Source: Falsochrobactrum tianjinense
Lineage (GTDB): Bacteria > Pseudomonadota > Alphaproteobacteria > Rhizobiales > Rhizobiaceae
NCBI RefSeq assembly: GCF_019100495.1
Contig: NZ_JAHRVA010000008.1
Coordinates: forward strand, 86,919-150,918
DNA length: 64,000 nt
Reading direction: 5' to 3'
In this document: in pieces, positions 39,179-42,193 of the stretch
Numbering within the stretch: position 1 is the first letter of the stretch
Layout of the letters: every line of letters begins with the position of its first letter
Position numbers and translations under genes: made by a program
The notes under the pieces: model-generated
The model's database searches: none
Told to the model about the DNA's origin: nothing
Seen by the model: the letters and a program-made list of their open reading frames with translations, nothing else

Positions 39179-39421
39179 ATGAGAGAATGAATCAGCGAAA
39201 TTGATCGCAGCGTCGACACCGGAAGCCAAATTGCACCTGTAATGATCTGGAGCGTCTACTCTTGCCGGAAATTCTTTAAATGTCGTGAATGTGATGGCCG
39301 CGCTCCCTTCATAAGCCGGGAGCCAAAATATCGCAGTGACGACATGATATCGCAGTGACGACATGGACTGATTGATTTATGTCGCTATGTGAATATTGAG
39401 ACTCACCCTGAAAGCCCCCTC

Positions 39422-40660
39422 ATGACCGCACGTCTTTCATTCGCGCGCGAGCGCATCAACGTTCTTCTTCTCGAAGGCATCAATCAGTCGGCTGTCGATT
39501 ATTTCAAATCGTCGGGCTACACGAATGTTGTTCACATACCCAAAGCGCTCGACAAGGCAGAGCTGATCGAAGCCATCGCCTCGGCGCACATCATCGGCAT
39601 CCGTTCGCGCACGCAACTGACGGACGAGGTATTTGAAGCGGCGCAGCGGCTCATCGCAGTCGGCTGCTATTCGGTGGGGACCAATCAGGTCGATCTGAAA
39701 GCAGCGCGCAAGCGCGGCATCCCGGTTTTCAATGCGCCCTTCTCCAATACGCGTTCGGTGGCGGAACTGGTGATCGGCGAGATCATCATGCTGATGCGGC
39801 GCATCTTCTCGCGCTCCGTCAAGGCCCATGCAGGCGGCTGGGAGAAATCGGCCATCGGCAGCCGCGAGGTGCGCGGCAAGACGCTGGGTATCGTCGGCTA
39901 TGGCAATATCGGCTCGCAGGTGGGTAATCTCGCCGAAAGCCTTGGCATGAACGTGCGTTATTACGATACGACTGACAAGCTGCAATATGGCAATGTCATT
40001 CCGACCGACACGCTTGATGAGCTGCTCGCCATTTCCGATGTCGTCAGCCTGCATGTGCCTTCCAACAAATCGACTGCCAAGATGATTACGGAAGCCCGGC
40101 TGCGCAAGATGAAGAAGGGAGCCTTTCTCATCAACAATGCGCGCGGCTCGGTGGTGGACCTCGAAGCGCTGGCACGCATACTTGACGAAGGCCATCTGGC
40201 CGGTGCGGCGATCGACGTATTCCCGACTGAACCCGCCTCCAACAAGGATCCGTTCACATCGCCCTTGCAGGGGCTTGAGAATGTCATTCTCACCCCACAT
40301 ATCGGCGGCTCGACCGAAGAGGCGCAGGAGCGGATCGGCACGGAAGTCGCCCGCAAGCTGGTGGAATATTCCGATGTCGGCTCCACGCTCGGCGCGGTCA
40401 ATTTTCCGCAGGTTCAATTGCCGCCCCGTCCAAGCGGTACGCGCTTCATGCATGTGCATGAAAACCGCCCCGGCATTCTCAACAGCCTGGTCAATATTTT
40501 CTCCTCGCACGGCATCAACATCGTCAGCCAGTTTCTGCAAACCGATGGCGAGGTCGGCTATGTCGTGATTGAGGCTGATGGGATGGACGATTTCAGCGAT
40601 GATGTGTTTCAGGCCCTGCGCGAGATACCCGGAACAATCCGGGCCCGTCTGCTGTACTGA
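39422..40660 (+). CDS. serA: D-3-phosphoglycerate dehydrogenase (ACT-domain form)
   Basis: First step of serine synthesis from 3-phosphoglycerate, NAD-dependent. 412 residues, the length of the E. coli type (about 410), not the long form. The NAD site VGYGNIGSQVGNLAESLGM lies near 160. The catalytic Arg is in NNARGSVVDLEAL near 240, Glu near 265 and His in TPHIGGSTEEAQERIG near 292. A C-terminal ACT domain (about 338-412, HENRPGILNSLVNIFSSHGI) gives serine feedback. Start is uncertain: ATG 39422 lacks an obvious ribosome binding site, and GTG 39389 is in frame. Confidence 0.95.
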   Translation: MTARLSFARERINVLLLEGINQSAVDYFKSSGYTNVVHIPKALDKAELIEAIASAHIIGIRSRTQLTDEVFEAAQRLIAVGCYSVGTNQVDLKAARKRGIPVFNAPFSNTRSVAELVIGEIIMLMRRIFSRSVKAHAGGWEKSAIGSREVRGKTLGIVGYGNIGSQVGNLAESLGMNVRYYDTTDKLQYGNVIPTDTLDELLAISDVVSLHVPSNKSTAKMITEARLRKMKKGAFLINNARGSVVDLEALARILDEGHLAGAAIDVFPTEPASNKDPFTSPLQGLENVILTPHIGGSTEEAQERIGTEVARKLVEYSDVGSTLGAVNFPQVQLPPRPSGTRFMHVHENRPGILNSLVNIFSSHGINIVSQFLQTDGEVGYVVIEADGMDDFSDDVFQALREIPGTIRARLLY

Positions 40661-40804
40661 TCAACGAGCTTTTAGACGGCTGATCCGCGTGGTTTTCCGG
40701 AGCCGCGCGGGTCGTTTATTTGCGCCCGGTGCGTAAAGTCACCGAGAAATCATTGACTCTTTTTCTAAAGAGCTTAAAAGCGCACACGGAAAAGGAGACA
40801 CTCC

Positions 40805-40933
40805 GTGAACGCTTCCAGCGCATCACATAGCCTGTATGGAATGAATGGCCGTGCCGCCATTCGTTGTCCTATGGCGTCCGTTTCCAAAACGACCACGGCC
40901 ACTTGCATTAAAACGACCACGAAAACGGTCTGA
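40805..40933 (+). CDS. Putative Thr/Lys-rich leader peptide of asd
   Basis: GTG 40805 follows AAAGGAG (40791-40797) at seven bases and opens 42 codons ending in TGA 40931. The last 16 residues read SKTTTATCIKTTTKTV: eight Thr, three Lys and one Ile, all aspartate-family products made downstream of Asd. This resembles the threonine operon leader of enterobacteria. Competing RNA stems and a terminator follow before asd. Likely role: ribosome stalling at Thr/Lys codons when these amino acids run short. Inference; no homologue known to me. Confidence 0.6.
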   Translation: MNASSASHSLYGMNGRAAIRCPMASVSKTTTATCIKTTTKTV

Positions 40934-40960
40934 TCCCTTGGCCTGCTCGCCCTCTCTCCC

Positions 40961-40986
40961 CGGGTCTGGCCCTGGGAAAAGGCCCG
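40961..40986 (+). promoter_or_regulatory. Candidate antiterminator stem before asd
   Basis: CGGGTC (40961-40966) can pair with GGCCCG (40981-40986). That pairing uses the same CCCG bases needed for the 5' arm of the terminator at 40983-41003, so the two stems exclude each other. Confidence 0.5.
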
Positions 40987-41003
40987 CTGGTTGGCGGGTT
41001 TTT
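40983..41003 (+). terminator. Leader terminator before asd
   Basis: CCCGC (40983-40987), a 6-base loop, GCGGG (40994-40998) and TTTTT (40999-41003). It sits 50 bases after the leader-peptide stop and 30 bases before asd, so it would stop transcription before the gene. Confidence 0.7.
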
Positions 41004-41032
41004 ATGGAAGCGGAGAGGACAGGAGAAGACAG

Positions 41033-42067
41033 ATGGGATTTAAGGTAGCAATTGTCGGCGCCACCGGAAATGTCGGGCGCGAAATGCTCAATATTCTTGA
41101 AGAGCGCGGCTTTCCCGCCGATGAGGTTGTCGCGCTTGCCTCGCGCCGCAGTCAGGGTACGGAAGTATCCTATGGCGACAAGACGCTGAAAGTGAAAGCG
41201 CTCGATAATTACGATTTCTCCGACACCGATATTTGCCTCATGTCCGCTGGCGGCTCGATCTCGCAGGAATGGTCGCCGAAGATCGGCGCGCAAGGCTGTG
41301 TCGTTATTGATAATTCCTCGGCCTGGCGCTATGACGCCGAAGTGCCGCTGATCGTACCGGAAGTGAATGCGGATGCGATCGCAGGCTTTCGCAAGAAGAA
41401 CATCATTGCCAATCCAAACTGCTCGACTGCGCAGCTCGTCGTAGCGCTCAAGCCGCTGCATGACGCAGCCACAATCAAGCGCGTTGTCGTCTCCACCTAC
41501 CAGTCGGTTTCGGGTGCGGGCAAAGAAGGCATGGACGAGTTGTTCGAGCAGTCGCGCGCCGTTTTTGTCGCCGATCCGATCTCCACAAAGAAGTTCACGA
41601 AACGCATCGCTTTCAACGTTATTCCGCATATCGATACATTTATGGAAGACGGCTACACCAAGGAAGAATGGAAGATGATGGCCGAAACCAAGAAGATGCT
41701 CGATCCGAAGATCAAGCTGACGGCGACTGCTGTGCGCGTGCCAGTCTTTATCGGCCATTCCGAGGCGGTGAATATCGAGTTCGAAAAGCCGATTTCGGCG
41801 GAAGAAGCCCGCGAGATTCTGCGCGAAGCGCCCGGTTGCCTCGTTATCGATAAGCATGAAGATGGAGGCTACATCACGCCTTATGAATCTGCTGGGGAAG
41901 ATGCGACCTACATCAGCCGTATCCGCGAGGATATCACGGTCGAGAATGGACTTGCTCTGTGGGTGGTCTCTGACAATCTGCGCAAGGGTGCCGCGCTCAA
42001 CACAATCCAGATCGCGGAGCTTCTGGTTGCGCGCGGCCTGATCAAGCCGAAAGCTCTGGCCGCGTGA
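41033..42067 (+). CDS. asd: Aspartate-semialdehyde dehydrogenase
   Basis: Reduces aspartyl phosphate to aspartate semialdehyde, the branch point to lysine/diaminopimelate, threonine and methionine. 344 residues. The NADP site VAIVGATGNVGREMLNIL opens the protein. Phosphate Arg lies near SRRSQGTEV, and the catalytic Cys is in ANPNCSTAQLV near 130. GAGKEGMDEL near 160 and VPVFIGHSEAVNIEF with the general-base His near 245 complete the site. ATG 41033 has AGGAG (41021-41025) at ideal distance; upstream bases form the terminator of a Thr/Lys-rich leader. A bidirectional terminator follows. Confidence 0.97.
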   Translation: MGFKVAIVGATGNVGREMLNILEERGFPADEVVALASRRSQGTEVSYGDKTLKVKALDNYDFSDTDICLMSAGGSISQEWSPKIGAQGCVVIDNSSAWRYDAEVPLIVPEVNADAIAGFRKKNIIANPNCSTAQLVVALKPLHDAATIKRVVVSTYQSVSGAGKEGMDELFEQSRAVFVADPISTKKFTKRIAFNVIPHIDTFMEDGYTKEEWKMMAETKKMLDPKIKLTATAVRVPVFIGHSEAVNIEFEKPISAEEAREILREAPGCLVIDKHEDGGYITPYESAGEDATYISRIREDITVENGLALWVVSDNLRKGAALNTIQIAELLVARGLIKPKALAA

Positions 42068-42086: not shown

Positions 42087-42114
42087 AAAAAACCCCGCGT
42101 GAGCGGGGTTTTTT
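42087..42114. terminator. Bidirectional intrinsic terminator after asd
   Basis: AAAAAACCCCGC (42087-42098), loop GTGA, GCGGGGTTTTTT (42103-42114). A perfect stem with T runs on both strands. Confidence 0.92.
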
Positions 42115-42193
42115 ATTGGCTGCTTGGTTGCGACCATGGAGAGGTGCTGTCATTCTGGTGGAAATACAGCGGATCTCTAGCAAGGTGAGAACA

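What the first reader, a model, noticed from the sequence alone, without database searches (positions are those of the whole stretch)
40791..41033. Thr/Lys-rich leader peptide and competing stems before asd: likely transcription attenuator
A good ribosome binding site (40791-40797) leads a 42-codon frame whose last 16 residues are SKTTTATCIKTTTKTV. It ends 50 bases before a terminator (40983-41003). CGGGTC (40961-40966) can pair with GGCCCG (40981-40986), destroying the terminator's 5' arm. Asd makes the precursor of Thr, Lys, Met and (via Thr) Ile, the very amino acids enriched in the peptide. Leader-peptide control is classic for the thr operon of enterobacteria. I know of no description for asd in this group, so it may be new. 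The antiterminator stem is 28 bases beyond the stop codon, farther than in trp, so the mechanism may differ in detail.
Basis: partly seen in the sequence, partly recalled or inferred. Interest (0 to 1): 0.85.

Follow-up and report, generated by a model that had tools for sequence, protein, structure and literature searches.

The report
Threonine-lysine leader peptide before asd
Just ahead of the gene asd, which makes a shared building block of lysine, threonine and methionine, this bacterium and many relatives carry a tiny gene packed with lysine and threonine codons plus a conserved RNA fold, most likely a sensor that raises enzyme production when those amino acids run short.

Summary
A 42-codon frame with its own ribosome site ends SKTTTATCIKTTTKTV, just before a terminator-like hairpin and asd. 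At least 7 Thr+Lys in the last 16 codons occur in 72 of 80 named relatives (79 of 80 at 6), 33 of 34 family loci (own locus and 6 repeats included) and 57 of 104 loci of other families in the order, against 0 of 4000 control windows. Variation sits mainly at third codon positions. A conserved promoter and a covarying RNA fold accompany it.

Thr/Lys leader-peptide control of asd is the best reading. The proposed antiterminator is at shuffle level. U-run hairpins occur in 26 of 59 Brucella/Phyllobacterium/Mesorhizobium-type leaders, 0 of 36 Rhizobium/Agrobacterium-type and 1 of 48 others. The conserved fold ends beside the asd ribosome site, so translation may be the read-out; folding did not decide.

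Prior art: S. meliloti SEP5, called possibly a leader peptide, conserved only in Sinorhizobium (PMC10117765, passages). The wider range and the fold were not in the papers I found.

The parts
40753..40758 (+). -35 promoter element TTGACT; the -10-like TTAAAA lies at 40774-40779
   Evidence: TTGA[CA] lies 258-325 nt before asd in 77 of 80 named relatives (anywhere upstream of the tail in 79 of 80). In those 77 rows T-A-A-A at 22-25 nt from its start is 92/94/86/60% conserved. No transcript data.
40791..40797 (+). ribosome binding site AAAGGAG of the leader peptide
   Evidence: sequence; 7 nt before GTG 40805
40805..40933 (+). leader peptide frame, GTG start, 42 codons, VNASSASHSLYGMNGRAAIRCPMASVSKTTTATCIKTTTKTV
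   Evidence: tail conserved in relatives
40883..40930 (+). Thr/Lys-rich tail, last 16 codons SKTTTATCIKTTTKTV (8 Thr, 3 Lys)
   Evidence: codon conservation; 0 of 4000 control windows
40897..40901 (+). P0 outer 5' arm GGCCA inside the leader codons, pairs with TGGCC 40939-40943
   Evidence: 86 of 95 family sequences keep 5 or more complementary bases between these two stretches, against 18% when the 3' stretch is shuffled; variants such as CAGCC:GGCTG; in the window's predicted fold
40915..40930 (+). P0 inner hairpin GACC (40915-40918) : GGTC (40927-40930) within the tail codons
   Evidence: GACC:GGTC 40, GACG:CGTC 36, CACC:GGTG 4, not fully paired 15 of 95
40934..40943 (+). E3, TCCCTTGGCC just after the leader stop: holds the 3' arm of P0 and can pair with the purine element near asd
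   Evidence: E3 with purine element paired in 96.6% of cells against 92.0% shuffled, 0 of 500; weakened in the window, which lacks one G of the partner
40951..40956 (+). E4, P1 5' arm CCTCTC
   Evidence: pairs with 41013-41018 in the predicted fold; P1 covariation
40957..40977 (+). P2 hairpin
   Evidence: predicted fold; C-G to G-C exchange between clades
40978..41003 (+). P3 hairpin with U run 40999-41003: intrinsic-terminator-like in this lineage
   Evidence: U-run hairpin in 26 of 59 clade A, 0 of 36 clade B, 1 of 48 other leaders
41013..41018 (+). E7a, P1 3' arm GAGAGG, just upstream of the asd ribosome site
41021..41025 (+). asd ribosome binding site AGGAG
   Evidence: sequence
41033..42067 (+). 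asd, aspartate-semialdehyde dehydrogenase, 344 aa
   Evidence: NCBIfam TIGR01296 asd_B and NF011456 above their cut-offs

Best explanation
A leader-peptide attenuator of asd. The asd transcript starts just before a small frame whose last codons are mostly Thr and Lys (inferred from the conserved promoter). When charged Thr- or Lys-tRNA is scarce, the ribosome stalls in the tail (inferred). The last codons form one arm of a hairpin (P0: GGCCA:UGGCC plus GACC:GGUC) whose other arm lies around and just after the stop codon (shown by conservation and compensatory change). A stalled ribosome would open P0 and free that arm, changing the fold of the rest of the leader: P1, which closes over P2 and P3 and ends beside the asd ribosome site, with E3 and E4 as alternative partners of the same purine element. 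asd expression then rises and restores the common precursor of Thr, Lys and Met (inferred).

How the fold is read out is not settled. I think control of asd translation the more likely general read-out (about 40-50%), with termination at P3 added in lineages, including this one, where P3 carries a U run (about 25-30% that termination is the main read-out here). The confidence given is for Thr/Lys leader-peptide control of asd, whatever the read-out.
For: Tail: 72 of 80, 33 of 34 and 57 of 104 loci against 0 of 4000 (overlaps). In 95 family sequences the last seven codons read K-T-T-(T/A/I)-K-T-V with mean minority-base fractions 0.029, 0.063 and 0.253 at codon positions 1, 2 and 3, the mark of selection on the peptide. 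The N-terminal part varies.

In this genome only asd was found to have it: model R1 hits once at E <= 1 (150 of 870 candidates scored), the KTTTKT pattern once; hom and lysC lack such a frame. Other pathway genes were not checked one by one.

Promoter: 77 of 80 named loci. Fold: 91.7% of cells paired against 83.9% shuffled, covariation 0.224 against 0.110, 0 of 500; wider, model-fitted set 0.280 against 0.111, 0 of 500. P0 inner pairs are swapped between ACC and ACG, both Thr. R1 finds the asd leader in 75 of 80 named loci at E <= 0.001 (46 of the 51 not in the seed, some of them close kin of seeds) and in 28 of 95 loci of other families at E <= 0.01 (95 of the 105 held).

Independent: S. meliloti SEP5, in the 5'UTR of an 'aspartate dehydrogenase' gene with six Thr and three Lys codons near its end, is translated by Ribo-seq and western blot of a tagged copy (PMC10117765, passages); the form KTTAKTTTKTV seen here has the same count.
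Against: No expression data here. Folding with a ribosome placed at each codon moved mean exposure of the asd ribosome site by at most about 0.08 (clades A, B, others). In the window alone exposure was 0.83 free, 0.34-0.38 with the ribosome at codons -12 to -10 and 0.55 to 0.89 after that, yet 0.35 free when a shorter stretch was folded, so these values are fragile. E3:E7a is weak in the window (forced state -39.7 against -46.1 kcal/mol for E4:E7a). P3 in the window forms at all ribosome positions tried, so a terminator switch is not shown either.

A tree-aware single-pair test found no pair with E below 1 in either clade (low power). The own-versus-swapped duplex test favours P1 only outside the family and P0 only in clade A; P1 in clades A and B gave p 0.11 to 0.96, and two of five control pairs were also significant. 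The both-sides changes of P0 and P1, and most of those of P2, follow one split between two clades. 47 of 104 loci of other families fall below the tail score.
Confidence: 0.8

Rival explanations
1. Classical transcription attenuator: stalling favours CGGGTC:GGCCCG, which breaks the terminator at 40983-41003.
For: In the window there is a U-run hairpin, and such hairpins occur in 26 of 59 clade A leaders against 7 of 295 shuffles. By eye the window has another candidate antiterminator, E3 GGCCT (40940-40944) with AGGCC (40980-40984), five pairs, not tested on relatives.
Against: The proposed antiterminator is no better than shuffles. The hairpin dominates at every ribosome position tried. Clade B has 0 of 36 U-run hairpins yet keeps the peptide, P0, P1 and P2.
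Confidence: 0.25
2. Translational attenuator only: stalling frees the asd ribosome site from pairing with the pyrimidine-rich elements E3/E4; no termination step.
For: P1 ends beside the ribosome site in clades A and B and in several outside families. In clade B the ribosome-site bases are paired with mean probability 0.72, of which 0.66 is with bases 18-23 after the leader stop, the E4 region. Forcing E3:E7a opens the site in clade B from 0.31 to 0.58 (15 rows, one of them really clade A). A U-run hairpin was found in 0 of 36 clade B and 1 of 48 other leaders.
Against: A placed ribosome altered mean exposure little at equilibrium. In clade A forcing E3:E7a changes little (0.47 to 0.49). In clade A and outside the family no single partner of the ribosome site dominates.
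Confidence: 0.4
3. The peptide or the short leader RNA acts in trans, as reported for the S. meliloti trp attenuator RNA rnTrpL and peptide peTrpL, and cis control of asd is secondary.
For: Precedent in the same order (rnTrpL and peTrpL as described in PMC10117765, passages).
Against: Only the Thr/Lys tail is conserved; the N-terminal half is not. The conserved RNA reaches to the asd start codon, which fits cis control.
Confidence: 0.07
4. Chance or composition: the frame is a by-product of the sequence and is not translated.
For: The N-terminal half is not conserved and its start codon cannot be assigned from the relatives.
Against: 0 of 4000 control windows, third-position pattern, translated S. 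meliloti counterpart (PMC10117765).
Confidence: 0.02

Closest known systems
S. meliloti SEP5 sORF (PMC10117765, 2023; passages seen)
   Same: A small translated ORF with six Thr and three Lys codons near its end, in the 5'UTR of a gene the paper calls aspartate dehydrogenase; suggested there to be possibly a leader peptide. Very probably the same element (inference).
   Different: The paper says it is conserved only in Sinorhizobium; the passages I saw describe no RNA structure and no regulation test. I could not identify S. meliloti itself among the loci.
thr operon leader peptide thrL of enterobacteria (recalled)
   Same: A leader peptide rich in codons for end products of the aspartate pathway, before a biosynthesis gene, with a terminator-like hairpin in the window.
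   Different: It controls thrABC, with Thr/Ile codons; here asd with Thr/Lys codons. No Rfam match. The U-run hairpin is not conserved.
trp attenuator (trpL/rnTrpL) of S. meliloti, as described in PMC10117765
   Same: Same order; small leader ORF at the start of the transcript before an amino-acid gene.
   Different: 14-aa leaderless peptide and Trp codons; here 42 codons in the window, with a ribosome site.
Ribosome-stalling translational attenuators such as ermC leaders (recalled)
   Same: A leader ORF whose stalled ribosome could expose the next gene's ribosome site.
   Different: Induced by drugs through the nascent peptide, not by codon starvation; ribosome-site exposure was not shown here.

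Membership tests
Ribosome-mediated transcription attenuator (thrL/trpL type) | short leader ORF with its own ribosome site before a biosynthesis gene | tested here: met
   conserved promoter; translation itself not testable here
Ribosome-mediated transcription attenuator (thrL/trpL type) | conserved run of codons for the pathway's end products | tested here: met
   K-T-T-(T/A/I)-K-T-V at the end of most of 95 family leaders (86 to 94 of 95 for each position other than codon -4), third-position variation
Ribosome-mediated transcription attenuator (thrL/trpL type) | intrinsic terminator between leader and gene | tested here: inconclusive
   present in the window and 26 of 59 clade A leaders; 0 of 36 clade B, 1 of 48 others
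Ribosome-mediated transcription attenuator (thrL/trpL type) | conserved antiterminator competing with the terminator | tested here: not met
   the proposed CGGGTC:GGCCCG is at shuffle level; hairpin dominant at all ribosome positions tried; other candidates not tested
Ribosome-mediated transcription attenuator (thrL/trpL type) | hairpin formed by the leader codons and the segment after the stop (1:2) | tested here: met
   P0: 80 of 95 keep the four inner pairs, in three versions; 86 of 95 keep 5 or more outer complementary bases against 18% shuffled
Ribosome-mediated transcription attenuator (thrL/trpL type) | read-through depends on the amino acid | not testable with these tools
   needs expression data
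Ribosome-stalling translational attenuator | gene's ribosome site sequestered unless the leader ribosome stalls | tested here: inconclusive
   site 0.41-0.54 unpaired by default on average; little change with a placed ribosome; opened in clade B when E3:E7a is forced
Rfam families, threonine leader and lysine riboswitch included (those two names recalled) | match to the covariance model | tested here: not met
   only a tRNA in the window at gathering scores; nothing up to E = 1 in 40660-41100
S. [quoted passage not shown]
   composition and place agree with PMC10117765 passages; the S. meliloti sequence itself was not compared

The most novel reading that the evidence does not exclude
A widespread, dual Thr/Lys starvation sensor in this order that acts mainly on translation of asd: the ribosome's position on the leader codons chooses between two near-repeat pyrimidine elements (E3 and E4) competing for one purine element beside the asd ribosome site, with intrinsic termination added or lost lineage by lineage on top of a constant sensor.
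Probability: 0.35. Interest if true: 0.75.

Novelty: new variant of a known kind. Interest (0 to 1): 0.62.

Why it matters
Asd sits at the branch that feeds Lys, Thr, Met and cell-wall diaminopimelate. A leader that counts both Thr and Lys codons would be a shared control point for many bacteria of this order, for which my paper searches turned up only the SEP5 remark. The comparison also offers a natural test of how attenuators evolve: the sensor (peptide and P0) is kept in the family while the U-run hairpin is present in some lineages and absent in others.

Tried and rejected

Per-pair covariation against a tree-based null within clades A and B: lowest E 3.5 and 1.7, nothing significant; few substitutions, low power.

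Ribosome-site exposure with a placed ribosome: mean change at most about 0.08, so a simple occlusion model is not supported.

Own-versus-swapped duplex test: P1 better than swapped outside the family (p 0.0015 and 0.0005) and P0 in clade A (0 of 2000), but not P1 in clades A and B nor P0 in clade B or outside. Two of five control pairs (lead:pre, upl:post) were also significant outside the family. I do not lean on it.

P(P1) against shuffles: mean 0.85 against 0.59 in 153 loci, but the measure is loose.

Other leaders in the genome: hom and lysC have none. Other orders of the class: of 29 loci fetched from 88 matching genomes, 26 had a readable start (one, L223, is of the same order); 1 (L233) scored 8, the rest 5 or less. 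One viral contig encodes an Asd relative, not followed.

Rows dropped: 22 of 219 loci had no recognised asd start; 21 were recovered for the counts only (L211 not). Structure tests used loci with tail score >= 6 and stop 85-135 nt before asd: 153 of 197, then 142 unique, of which 95 family rows (59 clade A, 36 clade B). Clade A/B is my own split by the bases after the stop codon; one search used a looser rule and put one clade A row (L052) in B. The 'Out' set of 48 held one family member (L131), and its single terminator is that locus. One search covered 95 of 105 held loci of other families. A3 was built from 100 loci, nearly all chosen because the model had hit them, and holds 6 rows that are not asd leaders, counted as they were. 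One search lists the longest helix per locus, which is not always P1.

Full report
What is there. The window (genome of 3.5 Mb; nearest named relatives listed are Brucella, up to 94% in Asd) holds asd at 41033-42067 after serA (39389-40660; phosphoglycerate dehydrogenase). Before asd lies a frame of 42 codons, 40805-40933, with the ribosome site AAAGGAG, ending SKTTTATCIKTTTKTV. The coordinates in the finding are correct. After asd a strong hairpin with a U run is visible at about 42090-42115, so asd is probably transcribed alone (inference).

Is it conserved? I took 80 named relatives, genomes of the same family and order and of other orders of the class. The tail score passes in 72 of 80, 33 of 34 and 57 of 104 loci respectively, against 0 of 4000 control windows and 0 of 800 shuffles. 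The 34 include the window's own locus and 6 identical to named ones. In other orders, 1 of 26 readable loci scores as high (one of the 26 is of the same order). In 95 family sequences the last codons read K-T-T-(T/A/I)-K-T-V; bases vary at codon positions 1, 2 and 3 by 0.029, 0.063 and 0.253. The mean tail holds 6.3 Thr and 3.2 Lys (clade A), 5.1 and 2.9 (clade B), 7.1 and 2.4 (outside), with Ile and Met below 1. From this I infer that Thr is the main signal and Lys the second. This is a peptide under selection for its Thr/Lys codons, not a chance frame.

Promoter. TTGA[CA] lies 258-325 nt before asd in 77 of 80 named loci; T-A-A is 92/94/86% conserved 22-24 bases on. In the window this is TTGACT 40753-40758 and TTAAAA 40774-40779. 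The transcript would start a few bases before the leader's ribosome site, as in known attenuators (inference).

RNA fold. A structure-blind alignment of 30 sequences supports four helices: P0, formed by leader codons with bases around and after the stop; P1, between E4 and a purine element beside the asd ribosome site; P2 and P3 inside P1. 91.7% of cells pair against 83.9% in shuffles; covariation 0.224 against 0.110, 0 of 500. A wider set gives 0.280 against 0.111, with the bias that it was fitted to the structure and chosen by the model. P0's inner pairs occur as GACC:GGTC in 40, GACG:CGTC in 36 and CACC:GGTG in 4 of 95, not fully paired in 15; the first two versions use Thr codons ACC and ACG. 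Its outer arms keep 5 or more complementary bases in 86 of 95, against 18% when the 3' stretch is shuffled. P1 shows replaced helices such as CGCTTCCC:GGGAAGCG (L087), TTACTCCCC:GGGGAGTGA (L108) and ATGCTCTCCC:GGGAGAGCAT (within the 11-base match of L139). The model hits the leader in 75 of 80 named loci, 28 of 95 loci of other families and the window's genome once. Against this, a tree-aware single-pair test was not significant, and much of the change is one split between two clades.

The read-out. A U-run hairpin is found in 26 of 59 clade A leaders (7 of 295 shuffles), 0 of 36 clade B and 1 of 48 others, so intrinsic termination at such a hairpin cannot be the common read-out. In the window P3 forms at P >= 0.88 with a ribosome anywhere tried on the leader. 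E3, freed when P0 opens, can pair with the same purine element as E4 (96.6% of cells against 92.0% shuffled, 0 of 500, though one slid control has a higher covariation score). The two states have similar energy on average (-48.7 and -46.7 in clade A, -44.3 and -45.1 in clade B). Forcing E3 opens the ribosome site in clade B (0.31 to 0.58) but not in clade A (0.47 to 0.49). In the window E3:E7a is clearly weaker. Folding with a placed ribosome changes mean exposure by at most about 0.08; the window's own values swing more (0.34 to 0.89) and depend on the stretch folded. I hold the sensor as established by comparison and the read-out as open, leaning to translation with termination added in some lineages.

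Known or new. PMC10117765 (passages only) reports S. meliloti SEP5: a translated small ORF with six Thr and three Lys codons near its 3' end, in the 5'UTR of an 'aspartate dehydrogenase' gene, possibly a leader peptide, conserved only in Sinorhizobium. This is very probably the same element (inference); the present comparison shows a far wider range. PMC1273637 (passages) describes alphaproteobacterial RNA elements and mentions an ilvB leader peptide; 'asd' does not occur in its main text. Vitreschak et al. 2004, cited by both, was not read and may contain related predictions. Searches of the held library listed no other paper that looked to be on this; I judged by listings and opened only the two named. 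Rfam has no match.

Verdict. A real, conserved Thr/Lys leader-peptide element of asd: a known kind of control at a gene for which I found only one earlier hint, with a conserved fold that does not depend on a terminator.

Noticed in passing
window 42090-42115: Strong GC hairpin with a U run directly after asd, so asd is probably a single-gene transcript (not listed by the simple scan).
   Followed up: no
window 40681-40714: Terminator-like 15-pair stem after serA, before the asd leader promoter.
   Followed up: no
L124, L129, L135, L136, L147, L148, L152 and other loci outside the family: 47 of 104 order loci outside the family fall below the tail score upstream of asd, although asd itself is conserved; possible loss of the leader in some families.
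   Followed up: partly
L233, about 112 nt before asd: A Thr/Lys-rich frame (APTTTKKTKTVA) in a family labelled 'same class', not same order: an outlier that may date the element earlier or be a transfer.
   Followed up: no
L255: A viral contig (IMG/VR) encodes a relative of Asd, 64% identical over residues 1-242.
   Followed up: no
window 40805-40880 and relatives: The N-terminal half of the leader peptide and its start codon differ between genera; frames listed run from 19 to 70 codons because the true start is not known.
   Followed up: no
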